NCBI RefSeq assembly: GCF_900098745.1
Contig: NZ_FQTT01000010.1
Span: 264,567 to 328,566 of the forward strand
Source: Actinomyces glycerinitolerans
GTDB lineage: Bacteria > Actinomycetota > Actinomycetes > Actinomycetales > Actinomycetaceae
DNA length: 64,000 nt
Direction of reading: 5' to 3'
Shown here: in pieces, positions 53,987 to 64,000 of the stretch
How the letters are laid out: each line of letters opens with the position of its first letter
Numbering within the stretch: the stretch's first letter is position 1
Notes under the pieces: model-generated
Databases searched by the model: none
What the model saw: the letters and a program-made list of their open reading frames with translations, nothing else
What the model was told of the DNA's origin: nothing
Position numbers and translations under genes: made by a program

Positions 53987-54025
53987 TGCCTACCGATAGG
54001 TAGAGCCCTTGGATAGTGCCCTGTT

Positions 54026-54063
54026 CTGCGGCGCCCGACCGAATGTCCGGTCGGGCGCCGCAG
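54026..54063 (+). terminator. terminator after the NlpC/P60-like gene
   Basis: A perfect 15-bp stem CTGCGGCGCCCGACC with its complement and an 8-nt loop, 39 nt after the stop codon. Confidence 0.8.
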
Positions 54064-54089
54064 GTCTTGTCGCCGACATCCGCGCGACA

Positions 54090-54095
54090 TATCAT
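54090..54095 (+). promoter_or_regulatory. -10 of the leaderless antitoxin transcript
   Basis: TATCAT followed by exactly 7 nt and the ATG of the antitoxin gene, with no ribosome-binding site. Same spacing as the padR and lysS promoters. Confidence 0.5.
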
Positions 54096-54102
54096 TGACT
54101 TT

Positions 54103-54474
54103 ATGACTACTTCGGCACTGATCCAAGCACGTACGGCGCACCGTCGCACAACGATGACGGATTGGCGCACAGTAACCAACACGCTCGTCGACAACCTCGG
54201 CACCGGCCTGGTGTCACTGATCGTCGGAGTCGCACCAGAGACCATCATCCGCTGGACGAAGGGCACGTCCGCGAACCCCCGGGAAGCCAACGAACGACGC
54301 ATGCGGGAAGCGTTCCGCATCTACCTGGAATTGGCGGCCACGGACTCACCACACACCGTACGCGCGTGGTTTATGGGCTCGAACCCCGAGCTCGGGAACG
54401 ACTCCCCCGCGGAGGCGCTGTCGGAGGACCGCTTCAAGGAGGTCTTCGCCGCAGCTCGCTCCTTCCAGGCGTAG
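54103..54474 (+). CDS. Xre/ParS-type antitoxin of a Xre-RES system
   Basis: 123 residues. The centre shows a helix-turn-helix-like segment (LVSLIVGVAPETIIRWTKGT) typical of MbcA/ParS antitoxins that neutralise RES-domain toxins, and the C-terminal part may bind the toxin. It is directly upstream of the RES toxin gene, 11 bp apart, and probably leaderless. It would repress its own promoter. ATG at 54103 is chosen by the -10 spacing; an ATG at 54154 would leave only the core. Confidence 0.75.
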   Translation: MTTSALIQARTAHRRTTMTDWRTVTNTLVDNLGTGLVSLIVGVAPETIIRWTKGTSANPREANERRMREAFRIYLELAATDSPHTVRAWFMGSNPELGNDSPAEALSEDRFKEVFAAARSFQA

Positions 54475-54485
54475 TGGCTTCGTAG

Positions 54486-55145
54486 ATGACCATGCTATGC
54501 AAGCCGACGGGACCGCTGTACCGGATCGGTCGAGCGGACTCGCCATTTCACTTCTCGGAGATTTCGCCCGACGTCTCTGAGTTACCCCGGGCAGGCAACC
54601 GCTTCGACGTCCTCGGAGGCGGCGTTCTGTATGCGGCCAGCACTCCTACGGGCGCCTTCGTTGAGACACTGCAGTCGTTCCGACCGACCACGGCGGCACG
54701 GGCCGCTGTCGCGCGCGACGCCCCGGGGCTCATGATTGCTGGATCAGTGCCCCGGGACTGGCGTGAACGGCGTCGGCTCGCACGGCTAACCCTTGAAGAA
54801 CCAAGCCCGTTCATCGATGTGGAGAGTTCCGACGCCTGGCCGGTACTTGAAGACGCGCTGGCCCCTGAGCTGAGCCTGCTCGGCGTGTCACACATTGATG
54901 TCAGCATCGTCCGAGGATCCAATCGACTGGTGACTCGCCTGCTGGCGCGTTGGGCGTATCTCGCCTCATCGGCGTCCGGCGAACCGGCGTACGGCGGCGT
55001 TCGGTACATGTCGAAGCTCGGTCCCTTCGAGTGCTGGGCCATCTTCGACGGCGTTCAGTGGAACCCTGCTGGTCAGACCCGGATTACCAAGCAGGACGCC
55101 GCCTATCGGGAGGCCTGTGCTCTGCTCGAGTTGGTAGCGCACTGA
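54486..55145 (+). CDS. RES-domain NAD-degrading toxin
   Basis: 219 residues. The RES pattern is clear: LYRIGRADSPFHFSEI with the conserved Arg, then NRFDVLGGGVLYAASTPTGAFVETL, quoted in parts, with Tyr and Glu in the positions of the RES signature, and a Ser before RYMSKLG. RES toxins degrade NAD+. Its partner antitoxin is encoded 11 bp upstream. Placed next to a CRISPR array and effector operon, so it may act in the same defence island, though such pairs also occur alone. Confidence 0.85.
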   Translation: MTMLCKPTGPLYRIGRADSPFHFSEISPDVSELPRAGNRFDVLGGGVLYAASTPTGAFVETLQSFRPTTAARAAVARDAPGLMIAGSVPRDWRERRRLARLTLEEPSPFIDVESSDAWPVLEDALAPELSLLGVSHIDVSIVRGSNRLVTRLLARWAYLASSASGEPAYGGVRYMSKLGPFECWAIFDGVQWNPAGQTRITKQDAAYREACALLELVAH

Positions 55146-55547: not shown

Positions 55548-56316
55548 GTCTTAATGCACCTTGAGGTGCGAGGTGCTTCCTGACATGCCGGCTCGTATTT
55601 GCCGTCACTCGCGGCCACTGTCTTAATGCACCTTAAGGTGCGAGGTGCTTCCTGACCTGTACGAATACATTGCAGACGCCCTCCGCCAGTAGTCTTAATG
55701 CACCTTAAGGTGCGAGGTGCTTCCTGACCCAAGAGGCGGAGGCGATCGTCAATTTCATCCTTGCACGTCTTAATGCACCTTAAGGTGCGAGGTGCTTCCT
55801 GACCCCAAATGTCCAAGGAAACCCACCAGTGGCTGTCCGAGTCTTAATGCACCTTAAGGTGCGAGGTGCTTCCTGACCCGAGCTGAAAGCCGCCATTGAC
55901 CGGCTGGACGAGTGTCTTAATGCACCTTAAGGTGCGAGGTGCTTCCTGACAGAGAGCTTCCACCTGGATGAGGTCAGCATGACCGATGTCTTAATGCACC
56001 TTAAGGTGCGAGGTGCTTCCTGACCCGAGCTGAAAGCCGCCATTGACCGGCTGGACGAGTGTCTTAATGCACCTTAAGGTGCGAGGTGCTTCCTGACGTC
56101 TCAGTGGCGGATGACCGTCCGCCCTGGAGGGGGTCTTAATGCACCTTAAGGTGCGAGGTGCTTCCTGACCCGTGGCGGTCACACTAGCCTCCACCTGGGG
56201 GCTGACGTCTTAATGCACCTGAAGGTGCGAGGTGCTTCCTGACCCTTGATCAAGGAGGGGTCCACATGAGGTCCCACTGGTCTTAATGCACCTTAAGGTG
56301 CGAGGTGCTTCCTGAC
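55548..56316 (-). CRISPR. CRISPR array, 11 repeats of 37 nt and 10 spacers
   Basis: Repeat units start at 55548, 55620, 55692, 55767, 55841, 55914, 55988, 56061, 56133, 56207 and 56280. On the plus strand each begins GTCTTAATGCACC, continues into the palindrome GCACCTTAAGGTGC and ends GAGGTGCTTCCTGAC. Spacers are 35-38 nt. The 55548 copy (TTGAGG) and 56207 copy (TGAAGG) each differ at one base. Read on the minus strand, the repeat ends ATTAAGAC, resembling the 8-nt 5' handle of type III crRNAs, so minus-strand transcription from the right is likely. The spacers starting at 55878 and 56025 are identical. Confidence 0.95.
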
Positions 56317-56698
56317 CCCTACCCCTGGAAACCGCGTCATACCGCCACTTCCAGAGGCGAGATCGCCACCGACCCCGCAAGCACCCCACGAGACCGACTG
56401 GCACCAGGCCAAAACTACCACCTTTCGTTGAAAACAAGCCAAGCGCCACCGACACCCCTCCAACCCCCTCCAGCCACCAACTTTCAACGAAGTCATGCGG
56501 AAAAGTCAGGGTCAAAACGCACCAAACTTTGTACCGTAGATCGAATCGTGACCATCCGGCGAGCGCCACGCCAGCCACATGTGTCACATAAGAACCAGGC
56601 TGCACACGCGTCACACCTCCTTCCAGGCCCCTCCGCCGTCAAGACAGCCGGTCTCGCGCACCGACCACCAGCACCGCACGGTCGTTCCGCGCCTACGA
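56317..56698 (-). promoter_or_regulatory. probable CRISPR leader
   Basis: 382 nt between the array and the effector operon, AT-richer than its surroundings and free of supportable genes. If the array is read on the minus strand this is its leader. TTTCGTTGAAA (56423) and its inverted form TTTCAACGAA (56482) lie 48 bp apart and could be a binding site. I cannot point to a clear promoter. Confidence 0.55.
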
Positions 56699-59600
56699 TC
56701 ATCCCTCAATTTCCTGCACCAATCGCGTGAACTTGGAGAACCAGGACGCGCCGATGTCCAGCGGGCCGAAGTCGTCCTTACTCTCGCCACAGCCTTCGTT
56801 CTCGTTCCTAGCACCGCTTCCTGTCTTCCCCTTGGCATCACATTCCAAGCGCGCGATAAGCGCATCCAGTAAGTCAGCGAAGGTGAATCCCTCGGGAGCG
56901 TCCACCCGCAGCTCATCCAAAGCACGCTCCAACGCTTCCTGAACGGTGGAACGCCCATGGGTGATCACCAGTCTGTCGCGCACCTCGTAGGGAAGGCGCA
57001 AGAGATCGCCACGTTTTAGACATGCAAACGCAGCTTTTGTGCCAGCTTTCTTCCGCTCGGCTACCTTCTCCTTATTCAGTAGCGTGTCGGGCTCCTGAAG
57101 CAGGCTCTGCCCTCTCTTGGAAAGCCGGCGCGCGTGCACGGCCTCTGCCGCAGCCACCACCAGCCGCGCCTGCGTCAGCCAGTCCGCTTCATCGAATAGT
57201 AGACGTACCGTGCGCAGCACATCCACAATCACTCCAGCGTGGTCGTCGAGCCTTTCCGCCTGCCGCACCTGCACGTATTCCTGACGCAACTCTTCGCATT
57301 TCTCCGCGAGCGCGTCCATGTCCCGATCACCGGCGGCCAGCACCCGCACAGCGCTGAGCAGGTTGAGGCTGCGCAGGCTGATGGCGGCGGCACGCCGCAA
57401 GGCCTCCTCGGCGTCGTAGCGCAGGGCGATCCGGTGAAACTGGGAGGCCGGCTCCTTGATGCCCCGGCCCTTGTCTACGAAGGTCTGGACGAACAGCGGC
57501 ACAGCGTTGAGCGCGCACCACTCCTGCGCCCCCTCGAGCGCGCCGTAGACCGCAGACTTCTCCCCGGTTCCCACAATCACCACCGCGGACGGCATCTGCA
57601 GCGCCAGAACCGCGCCCACACGCTCGCGAACTGTCCACATCGCCTCGGGCACCGCCCGGGCTCCGGAATCCCCCTCACCGTAGTCCAAAAAACTCCAGCC
57701 CGGTTCGGGCAGCTCCCACTCCCGGTGCGCACCGTCGGCGACGACGGTCTGCGCGTTGAGCCAGGCCGTCTTCCTGGATTGGGGATGCGCCGAGTGCAGA
57801 ATGACGAACTCGACCGGCAGGGCGGGGTGCCCGTCCGGTCCCGCGGCGAACGCGTCCCGCTCCAGCAAGGCCCCAGGAACCGCCCGCCGCAGCTCGCGCT
57901 CGGGCTCGGCACGCAGCACACGCTCCGGGATGGTCGGCGACCGGAAGGACCTTCCACAACCGAATATGTACAGGACCGGACGCCGACCCGGCCGCGTCAC
58001 CCACTTCGGCAGCGCCTCAAGGAGAGCCGGCTCCCCCTCAACTACCGCCCAGTCCTCGACGTGCGGCGCCTGGCCGTCGTGAACGGTGCGCTTGGCCAGA
58101 TCATTGAGCGGCCCGGCGGAGGCGAGCCACGCGGTCGAGCCGGGGCAGTCCTCACCCAGGCGGACAGCCTCCGCCGCAGCGTCGGCAACGACCTCGCCGA
58201 GCATCTTCGGTCGACCATTGGCCTTCACGAAGCGCAACGGCGGGCGCGGCTTATCCCCCTTCTGCTCGGCCAGCTCCCGCTCCTTCCCATACAGGCTCCG
58301 GTAACGCCGCTCCACCCAGGCCCGCAGCGCCAGGCCGGCGCCGTGGTCGGCGCGCGCCATGTCGGTGACCGCCAGCGCGGCGAGTGCTCCCGGCTCCCTG
58401 TCATCCCCGTAGCGGGCGCGGTCCAGGGCGGCAGCGAGCGCCTCCGTCGCCTGCTGCTCCCCCGTCGGCAGCGCGGATGCCGCCCCCGTGGTCTCGGCCC
58501 AGTCCGAGGCCTGCTTGGGGTACCCGAGGGATCGCAGCCAGTAGAACGGGGCGACCCGGTTGGCGGCGCGCTCCAGGAACACGGCCCGCTTCTCTCCCTC
58601 CTCCGGGGCGACGGCGAGCCGCCAGTCCAGGCCCATCTGGTCGGCCAGACCCATGACCGCGAACACAACGGCGGTCGCCCCTGCGATGCTGGAGACGATG
58701 ACCTTCCCGTCCGTGATCGCCCCATCGTCATCCAGCCACCGGTGCAGGTCGTCGACGCACTTCCGTTCGAAGAGATCGCCATGCTGGTAGGCCTCGACCT
58801 GTAGCGCCAGCCCGAAGTACTCCTCAAGTTTGGCCTTTACGTCGGGGCGGTTGTAGGCCTGCTCCAGCAGCGCAGCCTCGACGTCGGTTTCGGTGCCCTC
58901 GCGGCCATTGGCCGTGCCCAGGAGGATTACCCGCACGACGGCGCCCCTGCCGCGCAGCGCCTCCAGCACCAGCGCCAGCGGGGTGCGCTTGAAGCGGCCC
59001 GGGCGCCCGCCCTCGTCCGGGGGAATGTTCAGCAGCCTGTTGGACAGCACCTCGGCGTCGGCCTCAGCCACCTGCTGCCGCAGTTCCTTCTGCCGGGCTT
59101 CCTGGGCGTGCAGACGTTCGTCCCGTTGCAGCTCGACGATGTCGGTGCCGAGTTCGCCCTGCCCGACCGGGTGAATGACGGTGATCATCGACTCCCCTCC
59201 GGTTGCTCGCCGTCGGCGCAGAAAACCCCGACCGCCCTCGATGCGGCCGCGCCTGCGCGAACCGATCCCAAGGACGTGACCACCGACTGCGGCACGCCCG
59301 CGGTCCCCTACCGCCCAGCGGTTGCGCCCCGGCGGAGGCCACAGCCTGACGTCAAACCACTTTGCCAGCGCCCAGGCGACCGCCATGGCCACGACGAGCA
59401 GCCCGACACCCGCACCCCACCAGGCCGCCCCTCGCAGGAGGGGACCGCCGTCGTGCAAGTTCGACCAGACCTCCAACACGACCGACAGCGGCAGGCCCAC
59501 AAAAGCGAGGATACCCACGGCCCACTCCATGGCGCGGGCGGAGTCCTGCTGCTCGCGCTCCAGCTTCTCCCGCCGGCGGTCGCGCTCCTGCCGCTCCTTG

Positions 59601-61087
59601 TCAGCGACGTGCTCCTGGCGCTCAATCAGGGTCTGTACGCTCTCCTGCAGCAGCCGCGCCTGCTGGACGGTCTGTTCCACCGCCCGGTCTAGACCCCCTG
59701 CCTGCTGCATCCAAGCCAGCACCATGTCGGCCTGTCGGTGCCGGGTGACATCGATCCACCATTCAGAGGCGAGGAACGAGACCGCCTCGCCGTCGAGCCG
59801 GATCGCCCTGGCGATGACAGGATCCAAGTACTTGGTCGCCACGTCCAAGTTCCCCGACGGCCCGATCTTCTCGGTCGCCACCCTCAGCTCCTGTGCGGTG
59901 GCCGCGAGGCTGAGGGAGAGTGCGCGCACGCGCAGCCGGTCCAAGACCACCAGCAGGTACACGTCCAGGTCGGTGGAACACATCTTGAGCATGGCCTCCA
60001 GAAGGAAGCCGTCGTCCTGGCGCGGCAGGTAGGCGGCGCCTCGCTCCCACACACTCACCGCCCAGCTCTGCGAGAGCACGTGAATGTTCTTCTTCGCCCG
60101 GGAGTAGCGTTCCTCCCCCAACTCGAAGCCCGTGGGGGACGGCAGGCTCCCCCACTGCCAACCCGCCGCCGTCAGCACCGGCAGCGGCAGCCTCGCACTA
60201 GACGTTCTTCCGGCCATCGCCTGGCGCAGATCGTCGAGCGGCTCGGAGCCCACCGGCACCTCCAGGCGCGCGCCGAGACTCTCGGGGGTCTCCCCGAACT
60301 CAGGGATCCACCGCCGACTCACCTCCCGAGGCACCCACGTCAGGGTGAACAGCGGGGCGGAGAACCAGGACTTCCGCGCGGTGTGCTCAGCCGCCAGCGT
60401 CACCCGTGCCGGACCACACACATCGGGACGCGCCAGCAGTTTGTTGATCGTCTCGCAAATGCCGACCACCCGGCTCGGGTGGCGCACGGCATCGTAAAAG
60501 CGCTCATAAGACCGCTCATCGGGTGGCTCTTGCGAGTCCTCATCCGCGTGAGCACCTTCCGAGTGCTCGCCATCCGTCTGCTCGTCATCCGCCGGCTCGC
60601 CGGGCAGCCGCTCGACATATGTGCGCGGGACGACGGCGTGCACCACCAGGATCGCCGTCCCCGCCCCGTCGCCATTCGACACGCGCAGCGCCTCCAGAGC
60701 GCCGATGCGCAGCACCCGCTTGTTGTCCTTGTCGCGGTGATCAACCAGCTTGTGCAACTCCAGGGAGCGGCGGTTGTCCGCGCCCAGCGGCGCGTCGCCC
60801 CCGTCCCGGCCGCTTCCCAGCAGGCGCTCGGCCACCTCCGGGTGGAAATAGGCGGCACGCATGCCCCGGTACGTCTGCCGCAACTTGTCATGGCGGTCCC
60901 TGGCACGGAAACTCAGGGGCTTGGCGGGCCAGTTCCCGAAGGCCTGACTCCAGCCACGATGCACCTCCACCTCCCACACCAAGACCACACGCATCTCATC
61001 GGGGTCCTTCAAGTGGATGAAGCCGGTGCGCGGCGGCCGGCTCGGGGCAGCCCCTTCCGTGGCCGGACGTTCCCGCTCTTCGGTCAT
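56699..61087 (-). CDS. membrane-tethered CARF-HEPN protein, Csm6/Csx1-like module fused to a two-TM N-terminal region
   Basis: 1462 residues, one uninterrupted frame. Residues 1-470 are a soluble region I do not recognise. A coiled coil (~472-518, rich in Glu/Arg/Gln) leads into two membrane segments (~519-541 and ~553-580) and a basic linker. From Met634 comes a module homologous to the upstream 795-residue protein: a Rossmann/CARF-like segment ([11 protein letters not shown], then [12 protein letters not shown]), a second such segment ([28 protein letters not shown]) and a C-terminal helical region with R-D-x5-H ([10 protein letters not shown], Arg1370, His1377), the HEPN pattern. Topology suggests both soluble parts are cytosolic. 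GAGGAGGG precedes the ATG, which overlaps the 150-residue gene. An internal start at 59188 is possible. Confidence 0.8.
59189..59202 (-). promoter_or_regulatory. strong internal ribosome-binding site before Met634
   Basis: GGAGGGGAGTCG immediately before an ATG (59188) inside the long frame, as good as any ribosome-binding site in this operon. It begins exactly where similarity to the free-standing paralogue begins, so a separate 829-residue soluble product may be made as well as, or instead of, the fusion. Confidence 0.55.
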
Positions 61088-61536
61088 CGGCCCTCCTCGT
61101 CCCATTGAGGACCTGCATCCCCACCGCCCACGGCGGCGGCGTCGACCGGCCGCGGCAGGCAACCCAGGCGGCGAGCACCGACCACCTGCCCATCGGCGTC
61201 CCGGATCAGATCATCGGGCCAGACCAGGTCGGTGCGCTGCGGGAAGTGCTCGGCCACCACCCGGCTGGTGACGTAGACCGTGCCGGGCTGGGGTGCGGGC
61301 AGGGGCGGGTCGATTCCGAGCCAGGTGGCGCCGACGGCGATGGGCACCTCCCGCGCACCGGTCGCCTCGCCGGGGTGCTCGGGGTCGTAGACGGTCAGCG
61401 TCTCCTGCCGCCCGTCCGACAGCAGCAGCCGGGGCACGACGGCGGCCCCCGGCAGCCGCAGCGGCCCGCCGTCCAGGTGCAGGATCACCTCGTGCGGGGT
61501 GAGGTTGACCAGAGCGAGAGGTTCTGCGGGTGTCAT
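61084..61536 (-). CDS. 150-residue protein of unknown function in the CARF-HEPN operon
   Basis: No family I can name. Visible landmarks are [17 protein letters not shown] near the start, [12 protein letters not shown] in the middle, and [20 protein letters not shown] then [14 protein letters not shown] towards the end, ending in a Gly/Asp-rich tail. Similar VNLTPH...VTS..VA...P.RTDL layouts occur in small phage- or plasmid-borne proteins of unknown role; this is from memory. ATGA overlaps on both sides couple it to the two CARF-HEPN genes, and GGAGGAG precedes it. It may modify, degrade or sense the same signal, which is inference. Confidence 0.7.
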
Positions 61537-63920
61537 GCGCGCTCCTCCGCCCAGTGCCGCAGTGCCCGGAACCTCTCGGCCCACGACTCGTCAAGACCGG
61601 TGGTCAGATTCCCGGGTCCGGCATTCACCGACTTGATGGCCTGCTCAAGCAGGTCTACATAGCCGAAGTCATCATCGACGTCGACGAACCTGTTGCGCAT
61701 CACCTCCCGCACCGCCTCATCGACCTGGCTGTCTCCGTGAGTGAGACGCACTTCGTTCCTGACCTCGTACAGAAGCCGCAGCAGGTCTCCGCGACTACAT
61801 GCCTCCACTCCATGTCTCTGTGCCGAGTACGCCTTGACGTCCTGCCACGCGTAACGCTCTCGGAACAGCGTTTCGGCGGCCTTCTTGCCCCGTCGCGGGA
61901 AGTCGACCGCCTCGGCTACAACAACCACCAGGCGTGGATCGACATCCCCCTCGGTTTCCAGACAGAGTTCATGGACCGTATCCATGACGGACAGCAGTAC
62001 GCCCGCATGCGCATCGGGATCCTTGGCGTTGACCGCCGCCAGGTACTCCTTGCGCAACTCATCACACGCCTGGGCCCACACATCCATGTCCTGGTCGCCG
62101 GCGCTGAGCACCCGCACGGCACTGAGCAGGTTGAGGCTGGAAAGGCTTGCGGCCGCCGCCTCGCGCAGTGCCGCCTCGGCGTCGTTGTGCAGGGCGATAC
62201 GGTGGAACTGCATTCCCGACCGCTTGATGTTCTGCCCCGGCTGGACCGAGGTCTGCACGAACAGCGGGACTGCGTGCTCGGCGCACCAGGCCTGGGCTGC
62301 CTCGAGGGCGCCGATCGCGACCAACTTCTGCCCCGATGCCACGATGGCGACTGCTGACGGCTGCTTGGTGCGGAGTACTTCACGAAGCATTACGCTCACT
62401 TCGCCAGCCAAGTCATCAACCGGCGCGAAATCATTACTCTCCGCTCCTCCGTAGTCGATGATGTCCACCCCGGGCGCGTACAGGTCCCCCGGCCTCTTTG
62501 CCAAAAGCGCGGAGGCACAGGTTTTGACCGCCGTCTCCTTCGATCCAGGGGACGCCGAGTGCAGCAGCAGAAAATCGACGTCGCCAACACCGCCGCCCTC
62601 AAGCATCCCTCCGGGCACGGCGCGCCTGAACTCCTCATCCGGTCCGGCATCCATGACGCGCTCGATCACCGACGACCGCTGGTAGTTGTCACCCATGCCG
62701 CAGATGTAGAGGACTCTCCCGCGCCCCGGCCAGTGCATCCAGGATGGAACTCGCTCTCCCAGTTCGGGGACCTGATTGACCGTCGCCAAGTCGGATGCCG
62801 TCGGCGCCGCAGCATCATGGACGGCGCGGTTGCCAACCGGCCTCAGGCGATCACCTGTTGTGAGAAGCCACGCGGCCGAGGTGGAGCCCTGGTCCAGCTG
62901 CTCATCGCGGACCAGGCCCAGCACCTTGCCCAGTTCCTTGCCCGGCAAGCGCTTGAACACGCTACTGATCTGATCGTCCTGGGCGCGCCCTGCGTTCTCC
63001 TCGGCCAGCAGGGCCTCATAGTGCTTCTCCACCCAGGCGCGCACGGCCAGACCAGCGCCGTTGTCCGCCCGGGTCATCTCCACCGCCACCAACGAAGCAA
63101 GCTGCTCATCGGTGGCCGCGGCCAACGCCTCTCCCCTCTCCTGCCCCGCGCCGCCGAGCACCGCCTGGAGATCCCGAAGTAGCCGCGTGTGCTCCTCGTC
63201 GATCAGTTCCTCTCGGCCGTTCTGCCGGGCCCACTGAGCGGCTTGCTCCAGATAGCCCAGGGCACGTAGCCAGTAGAAGGGCGCGTTGCCGTGGTGACCG
63301 CGACGGATCAGGCGCGCCTCGGCGTCGTCAGGACTCCCGGCAACCGCCAGACGCCAGTCGTAGCCGAGGTGGTCGACCACTCCCATGGCGCTCAGGCACA
63401 TCATGGTTGCCCCGCCGATCATGGACACCACCACGGGGCTGTCCGCAGCAGTGCCGTGCGCCGCCTCAACCCAGCTGCTGAGGTCTCCGCGGCCTACCTG
63501 CTCGTTCAAGTCGCCGTCGGCGTGAAGCTCCGCTATCACTTCTAACCCGTACCGTTTATGCAGAGCCGCTCTGATCTCGTCACGCTCCAGAAGCGAAGCA
63601 AGGGCCTTGGCAATGTCTGCCGTGGCCCCGTAGCCGGAACTGCTACCGAGCAACAGCACGCGTACCTGCCCCTCGTGGCCATCGTCCTGGATCGCTCCCA
63701 GTTCCAGGGCCAACGGCGTCCACACGAACCGACTCTCAAGCTCTTCAGCCACCGCACCGCGGAGCAGGAGGTCGACGGCCTCGCACCCCGCACCGCCCGC
63801 TGCGGCATTCTGCAGCGTTGTGACGCCGGCACACCTGGCTTGCTGGCGCTGTTCCCCCTCGAGTCTCAGGATGTCGCTACCCAGGTCGCCTTCGCCGACG
63901 ATGTGAACTAGCAGGGTCAT
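61533..63920 (-). CDS. soluble CARF-HEPN protein, Csm6/Csx1-like
   Basis: 795 residues, no membrane segment or signal peptide. Residues ~85-195 form a Rossmann/CARF-like segment ([32 protein letters not shown]). Residues ~400-560 form a second ([33 protein letters not shown], where SGQK resembles the GTK loop of CARF domains). The C-terminal region carries R-N-x5-H (Arg721-His728, [11 protein letters not shown]), as in HEPN ribonucleases. Csm6/Csx1 proteins cut RNA when bound to cyclic oligoadenylate. ATG at 63920 follows GAGAGGA; an in-frame GTG at 63959 exists. Paralogue of the C-terminal half of the membrane protein. First visible gene of the operon; more may lie beyond the edge. Confidence 0.8.
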
Positions 63921-64000
63921 GTCAGGTCCTCTCCGGACAGTGAGCAGGGTGGCTCGCACGGGCCGAGCGGATCGGCATGCCTGCGACGCCGGTCGCCTGT

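What the first reader, a model, noticed from the sequence alone, without database searches (positions are those of the whole stretch)
55548..63920. CRISPR array next to a three-gene CARF-HEPN operon without visible cas genes
The array is immediately downstream of an operon of two paralogous CARF-HEPN-like proteins and a small unknown protein, all with 4-bp overlaps. Repeat handle ATTAAGAC and effector type both point to type III signalling. Seen: the repeats, the paralogy, the R-[N/D]-x5-H motifs. Known: Csm6/Csx1 use CARF plus HEPN. Inferred: cyclic oligoadenylate control.
Basis: partly seen in the sequence, partly recalled or inferred. Interest (0 to 1): 0.9.

Follow-up and report, generated by a model that had tools for sequence, protein, structure and literature searches.

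The report
Type III-D CRISPR signalling effector operon
This is the alarm-and-response arm of an ordinary type III-D CRISPR immune system of an Actinomyces-like bacterium, with a recently described RNA-cutting enzyme, its off-switch enzyme and a membrane channel joined to a second copy of the RNA cutter.

Summary
The cas genes exist: cas10 starts divergently at window 63977, followed outside the window by Cas7-Cas5, Cas7, Csx19, two large Cas7-like genes, RT-Cas1 and Cas6. Four arrays share repeat and leader. Genes, architecture and CorA/Csm6-2 fusion in Actinomyces are in print (2024-2026): a new member of a known kind. Added here: both Csm6-2 copies keep the catalytic and core messenger-binding residues and are under purifying selection; the CorA/Csm6-2 linker is weakly constrained; relative G029 has the two as separate ATGA-overlapping genes; in the window the junction ATG has the second-best Shine-Dalgarno pairing of the ORF's 50 ATGs. 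The 'fusion' may therefore also yield a separate Csm6-2. Which messenger opens the III-D CorA remains open.

The parts
55548..56316 (-). CRISPR array, 11 repeats of 37 nt, 10 spacers; leader on the right, so transcribed leftwards; repeat on that strand ends in ATTAAGAC
   Evidence: one spacer present twice; strand inferred from leader position
56317..56579 (-). CRISPR leader, about 96% identical to the leaders of the three other arrays of the genome
   Evidence: blastn, 258-268 bp including 5 bases of the last repeat; 83% over 452 bp in relative G029
56699..61087 (-). corA/csm6-2' in one open reading frame (1462 codons, ATG at 61087, ATGA overlap with crn4)
59189..61087 (-). CorA-like part: soluble N-terminal region, TM-like helices at about 59456-59533 and 59348-59431, then a poorly conserved linker 59189-59332
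   Evidence: PADLOC CorA PDLC01178 8.5e-126; hydropathy and linker conservation
59186..59200 (-). in-frame internal ATG (59186-59188) with GGAGG at 59196-59200: possible own start of the second Csm6-2
   Evidence: in relative G029 the same ATG is the start of a separate gene
56699..59188 (-). second Csm6-2 copy (CARF-HEPN-CARF-HEPN), joined in frame to CorA
   Evidence: PDB 9w3u_A E 1.7e-137; PADLOC PDLC01975 1.2e-211; catalytic residues kept
61084..61536 (-). crn4a, ring nuclease (the small unknown protein)
   Evidence: PDB 9sma_A (Crn4a) E 3.8e-75; PADLOC Unk_01 4.5e-41; Unk01 identified as Crn4 in PMC12830947
61533..63920 (-). csm6-2, free copy
   Evidence: PDB 9w3u_A E 0, 76.6% identity over 792
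63921..63976 (.). 56-bp intergenic region between the divergent effector and cas operons
63977..64000 (+). first 24 bases of cas10 (continues as L009:10544-12571; GGDD, no HD string)

Best explanation
This is the effector module and one array of a type III-D CRISPR-Cas system in an Actinomyces-like bacterium. Shown from sequence: array, leader, Csm6-2, Crn4a, the CorA/Csm6-2' frame, divergent III-D cas genes with a Cas10 carrying GGDD and no HD string, RT-Cas1 and Cas6. Inferred from published work on close orthologues: crRNA-guided recognition of invader RNA makes Cas10 synthesise cyclic oligoadenylate; cA5 (and weakly cA6) binds the CARF pair of Csm6-2 and switches on its HEPN RNase; Crn4a and Csm6-2's own HEPN activity destroy the messenger. 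Inferred here, less certain: CorA carries a second, catalytically intact Csm6-2 on its cytosolic C-terminus, so messenger binding could act at the membrane, and an internal start could also give a separate soluble second Csm6-2.
For: PADLOC and PDB matches of the effector proteins. Divergent cas set: Cas10 2.4e-103, Csx19 3.9e-52, Cas7/Cas5 III-D models; RT-Cas1 with Pfam Cas1 2.4e-79 and RVT_1 1.2e-25, Cas6 1.4e-12. Cas10 GGDD at residue 391, RT FADD, Cas2-like ORF next to RT-Cas1 (Cas2 judged by eye, no profile run). R295, E299, H369, R723, H730, T175, K533, R25, F68, R422 and S456 (9w3u numbering; roles from PMC13187428) are present in both window copies. Crn4a T13, H15 and R112 (roles from PMC12830947) are at the same positions in the gapless alignment. 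G000/G005 dN/dS: free copy 0.114/0.473, joined copy 0.142/0.473, CorA 0.193/0.622, linker (44 codons) 0.625/0.913. Among 37 genomes of the window's genus, 14 of 16 with a Csm6-2 match also have a CorA match (some degraded, G020's only fragments), against 1 of 21 without (my tally).
Against: No spacer match to a phage beyond chance in the part searched, so the target class is not shown. The AlphaFold model of CorA failed (pLDDT 36.9), so its sensor is unknown. Messenger-contact positions differ in the joined copy (D100R, G101E, Q532E, L530T, and E10Q, L18V) and some in the free copy (D100Y, L530S, and R415Q in this alignment), so cA5 preference need not carry over. Tetramer-interface residues vary even among free copies. 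No expression data.
Confidence: 0.88

Rival explanations
1. The CorA/Csm6-2' ORF is a true obligate fusion: one 1462-residue membrane protein in which cA5 binding to Csm6-2' gates the channel, with no separate product.
For: One uninterrupted ORF in two genomes, G000 and G005; published reports of CorA/Csm6-2 fusions; topology fits, since two TM-like helices put the C-terminus on the same side as the N-terminus (inference).
Against: Linker only 34.1% identical over 44 aligned residues, against 75-85% for the four segments after the junction; internal ATG with the second-best anti-SD pairing of 50 ATGs; G029 encodes the two as separate ATGA-overlapping genes; on the csm6-2' tree the joined genes of G000 and G005 are not neighbours (G000 sits with unjoined G029, 99/95).
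Confidence: 0.36
2. The joined frame is a chance merger by frameshift of two coupled genes (or an assembly error) and works simply as separate CorA and Csm6-2' proteins.
For: Weakly constrained linker, conserved start ATGATCACC in G000, G005 and G029, Shine-Dalgarno in the window, G029 arrangement; joined state scattered on the gene tree.
Against: Two genomes with different linkers are both in frame and stop-free over about 44-48 codons; an assembly error in both is unlikely. The Shine-Dalgarno of G005 and G029 was only looked at, not scored, and seems weaker than the window's.
Confidence: 0.29
3. The CorA of this locus is opened by SAM-AMP, as in Bacteroides, independently of Csm6-2.
For: CorA family membership; SAM-AMP activates a III-B CorA (PMC10600005, passages).
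Against: No gene of a SAM-AMP-degrading type was recognised among the effector ORFs, and the literature notes their absence in III-D/Actinomyces loci and suggests another messenger; CorA is joined to and co-occurs with a cOA effector and a cOA ring nuclease. Similarity to another PADLOC CorA model is confined to residues about 413-517, next to the pore; which CorA clade that model stands for was not established.
Confidence: 0.15

Closest known systems
Actinomyces procaprae Csm6-2 (PDB 9w3u/9w3v/9w3w; PMC11229360, PMC13187428)
   Same: Free copy 76.6% identical over 792 residues; same CARF-HEPN-CARF-HEPN order, catalytic residues kept
   Different: A second copy, 39.5% identical to it, is joined to CorA; contact residues partly changed
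Crn4a ring nuclease (PDB 9sma; PMC12830947, there equated with Unk01)
   Same: 140 of 150 residues aligned without gaps, T13/H15/R112 kept, next to csm6-2
   Different: C-terminal ten residues fall outside the alignment; nothing else notable
Actinomyces CorA/Csm6-2 fusions reported in two loci (PMC11229360)
   Same: Same order, CorA N-terminal and Csm6-2 C-terminal
   Different: Accessions of the two published cases were not seen, so whether relative G005 is one of them is unknown; an internal start is not mentioned in the passages read
Bacteroides fragilis SAM-AMP/CorA/NrN type III-B system (PMC10600005)
   Same: CorA-type membrane effector next to type III cas genes
   Different: Subtype III-D; cOA effector and ring nuclease instead of NrN, DEDD or lyase

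Membership tests
Type III-D CRISPR-Cas | Cas10 with palm/cyclase motif | tested here: met
   PADLOC Cas10 2.4e-103, Pfam Cas10 palm2 1.6e-7; GGDD 391
Type III-D CRISPR-Cas | III-D type Cas5/Cas7 subunits and Csx19 | tested here: met
   Cas5_IIId 1.2e-11, Cas7_IIId 1.9e-47, Csx19 3.9e-52
Type III-D CRISPR-Cas | Array with leader and Cas6/Cas1 in the locus | tested here: met
   Four arrays in the genome; Cas6 and RT-Cas1
Csm6-2 | CARF-HEPN-CARF-HEPN in one chain homologous to 9w3u | tested here: met
   (sequence only; no model made)
Csm6-2 | Catalytic R295, H369, R723, H730 | tested here: met
   present in both window copies, and in 23 of 24 alignment rows; the other row does not cover them
Csm6-2 | Activation by cA5 / cA6 | not testable with these tools
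   T175 and K533 kept in both copies; other contacts vary
Csm6-2 | Homotetramer through CARF2 (V466, L473, L474, I488) | tested here: inconclusive
   kept in the free window copy, changed in the joined copy, but also changed in free copies of G005 (one of four) and G029 (four of four)
Crn4a ring nuclease | Homology to 9sma and residues T13, H15, R112 | tested here: met
   E 3.8e-75, gapless over 140 residues, T13, H15 and R112 at the same positions (roles from PMC12830947)
CRISPR-associated CorA | N-terminal soluble region plus two C-terminal TM helices, CorA profile | tested here: met
   PDLC01178 8.5e-126; two TM-like helices. Fold not confirmed: model failed
SAM-AMP signalling CorA system | SAM-AMP degrading partner (NrN, DEDD or lyase) in the locus | tested here: inconclusive
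   none recognised among the effector ORFs, but no dedicated NrN/DEDD/lyase profile was run on every ORF

The most novel reading that the evidence does not exclude
One frame gives two products: a CorA channel whose every subunit carries a cytosolic, catalytically intact cA5-type sensor-RNase, and, from the internal start at 59188, a soluble second Csm6-2. The III-D CorA would then be gated in cis by cyclic oligoadenylate rather than by SAM-AMP, giving membrane attack and RNA decay one shared trigger.
Probability: 0.25. Interest if true: 0.65.

Novelty: new member of a known kind. Interest (0 to 1): 0.36.

Why it matters
The messenger of the III-D CorA is called unclear in the 2025 classification (PMC12669027, passage), and cA6 was offered as speculation in PMC11229360 (passage). 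A locus with a free Csm6-2, a ring nuclease and a CorA-joined, residue-intact Csm6-2 makes that question testable with one protein. The junction data warn that CorA/Csm6-2 'fusions' may also express a separate effector.

Tried and rejected
Tetramer-loss idea: I first thought the joined copy had specifically lost the published tetramer contacts. Rejected, because the free orthologues of G005 and G029 have changed some or all of them too.

Spacers: the window array gave two weak phage matches (E 0.02, lying partly in the repeat, and E 0.2), the C14 array none; the C19b and C3 arrays were not searched. Cores of 4 of 37 distinct spacers gave no exact match in IMG/VR. Coding-strand test: in 24 of 37 spacers the strand complementary to the predicted crRNA looks more coding, p 0.099, method right in 1433 of 2000 held-out gene pieces: not significant.

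CorA structure: alignment of two rows only (window and A. johnsonii, 29% identical); pLDDT 36.9, pTM 0.27, not used and no fold search run. CorA in IMG/VR: no relative. Crn4 in IMG/VR: none; in phage records: 7 with a match, each below 60% identity. Csm6-2 in plasmids: none. Second CorA profile PDLC01043 over 396 genomes of the phylum: 107 with a match, at model positions 289-453 in the rows listed, that is the C-terminal helix/pore part, so they look like ordinary CorA transporters and tell nothing on the sensor. Rfam (gathering threshold) and tRNA scans of the window: none. phmmer of CorA against PDB: three chance-level matches. The look at the start context of the G012 csm6-2' failed (the script found no such start) and is not used.

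Full report
Observation. The array has 11 repeats of 37 nt. The genome is 3,695,248 bases in 19 contigs; the window is C19:264567-328566. The four arrays hold 11, 8, 16 and 7 repeats: 38 spacers, 37 distinct.

What the genes are. The free 795-residue protein (61533-63920) matches PDB 9w3u_A end to end, 76.6% identical over 792 residues. This is Csm6-2 of Actinomyces procaprae, first reported as cA6-activated (PMC11229360, section 22 and passages read) and later as preferring cA5, with HEPN-mediated self-limitation (PMC13187428; abstract, Results and Discussion read). The 150-residue protein matches Crn4a (9sma_A, 3.8e-75). PADLOC calls it Unk_01, and PMC12830947 (passages read) equates Unk01 with the ring nuclease Crn4. 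The last ORF is one frame of 1462 codons from ATG 61087: a CorA-like protein (PADLOC 8.5e-126) with two TM-like helices, then a second Csm6-2 (9w3u_A, 1.7e-137).

The cas genes. Fifty-six bp from the csm6-2 start, divergently, cas10 begins at window 63977. Beyond the window follow a Cas7-Cas5 protein, a double Cas7 protein, Csx19 and two large Cas7-like proteins on the + strand, then RT-Cas1 with a Cas2-like ORF (by eye) on the minus strand, a second array, and Cas6. Cas10 has GGDD and no HD string. PMC11229360 reports HD domains in 3% of III-D loci and suggests that III-D acts mainly through cOA signalling (passage).

Comparison in the genus. In 59 genomes of genus and order, the Csm6-2 profile matched 17, Crn4 15 and CorA 15. 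Of the 37 genomes of the genus among them, 16 have a Csm6-2 match; 14 of these also have a CorA match (some degraded, G020's only fragments), against 1 of the 21 others (my tally; G012, one of the two without CorA, is only 82% complete). A second CorA search in 49 genomes of the genus matched 19; judged by frame length, the CorA frame runs on into Csm6-2 in 2 of 19, the window genome and G005 (both confirmed by the gene tables). One search gives gene tables for 18 relatives and A. johnsonii, of which G015 and G019 show Crn4 alone. Where both were found there, csm6-2 precedes corA; crn4 lies between them in several, before csm6-2 in G016 and G034, and is fused to csm6-2 in one frame in G031. 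G000, G005 and G029 have a further csm6-2' after corA; G012 has only a csm6-2'-type gene. In a 23-row tree the csm6-2' genes of G000, G005, G012 and G029 form one clade (100/100) and the free copies of G000, G005, G029 and A. procaprae another (100/100), so the two copies are old paralogues; several deeper forks are weak and long-branched.

The junction. In G029 corA ends in a TGA that overlaps the ATG of csm6-2' (ATGA), so they are two genes there; its csm6-2' is itself split by a frame change. In G000 and G005 the same ATGATCACC start is in frame with corA. The linker before it is only 34.1% identical between G000 and G005 (44 aligned residues), and the TM hairpin 39.6% (53 residues), against 85.4% for the first 130 residues after the junction and 63-81% for the four CorA segments before the hairpin. 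Linker dN/dS is 0.625/0.913 on 44 codons, against 0.142/0.473 for csm6-2'. In the window the junction ATG is preceded by GGAGG. Of 50 ATGs in any frame of that ORF, its pairing with a recalled anti-Shine-Dalgarno tail ranks second (-10.0), after the ORF's own start (-12.1); the third is close (-9.4), so this is support, not proof. Shine-Dalgarno-like words also stand before other in-frame start codons of the ORF, and the contexts in G005 and G029 look weaker and were not scored. Within the csm6-2' clade the tree puts G000 with G029 (99/95), then G012, then G005, so the joined genes are not neighbours: either two mergers, or an old one undone in G029. Both speak for a junction that is easily made and broken. 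By raw identity, however, G000 is closer to G005 (77.7%) than to the decaying G029 piece (71.0%).

Residues. With roles taken from PMC13187428, both window copies keep R295, E299, H369, R723, H730, T175, K533, R25, F68, R422 and S456. The joined copy differs at E10, L18, D100, G101, L530 and Q532; the free copy at D100, L530 and, in this alignment, R415. R295, H369, R723 and H730 are present in 23 of 24 rows, the remaining row not covering them. Two of the paper's positions (L171, L561) read I and Q in the printed chain, so single contacts are to be taken with care. The published tetramer contacts are not conserved even among free copies, so nothing is built on them.

Mechanism. Shown: gene content, frames, residues, selection. 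Established for close relatives by others: Csm6-2 is an RNase triggered by cA5/cA6, and Crn4a cuts cA3, cA4, cA5 and cA6. One published result counts against a simple off-switch role: co-expressed Crn4a did not relieve Csm6-2 immunity in a plasmid assay (PMC12830947, passage). Inferred: the window system works so, CorA perturbs the membrane, and Csm6-2' tethers a second cOA sensor to CorA and may also be made alone. Which messenger opens the III-D CorA is unsettled in print (passages of PMC12669027 and PMC11229360).

In print or not. A full-text search for 'Csm6-2' listed five papers; four of them were read in part (PMC13187428, PMC11229360, PMC12830947, PMC12409355), the fifth only as a listing. 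A search for CorA, Csm6, type III CRISPR and 'internal translation' listed ten of 26 papers, with no occurrence of 'internal translation' in those ten. The dual-product idea was not met in what was read; that is not proof that it is unpublished.

Verdict. A sound first-stage observation, correctly interpreted in outline, that turns out to be a new member of a published kind, with one useful open question attached.

Noticed in passing
window 54016-55145: RES-domain protein (Pfam RES 2.3e-8) preceded by a protein with a below-cut-off Xre/MbcA/ParS antitoxin C-terminal match (E 0.035): a possible RES-Xre toxin-antitoxin pair just left of the array.
   Followed up: no
window 55878-55913 and 56025-56060: The same 36-nt spacer occurs twice in the array; the C14 array has two spacers differing by one base.
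   Followed up: no
L009:16764-18980 and L009:18964 to L010:1468: Two tandem large Cas7-like (Csm3/Cas7_IIId) proteins; only one was seen in relatives such as G006 and in each of the two G014 loci, within the stretches fetched.
   Followed up: no
L012:10026-10501 and L011:12445-13582: Two further arrays with the same repeat and leader on other contigs. Ten neighbouring ORFs (five at each) scanned in PADLOC held no cas gene; one weak mad2 match (6.6e-4) at L011:11583-12275.
   Followed up: partly
L068, L076, L082 (G009, G020, G032): CorA is broken or not found while csm6-2 and crn4 stay open, which suggests CorA is dispensable to the module.
   Followed up: no
phage records, e.g. Paenibacillus phage Scottie (H4) and Thermobifida phage P318 (H3): Crn4-like proteins in 7 phage records, possible anti-CRISPR ring nucleases as already proposed in PMC12830947.
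   Followed up: no
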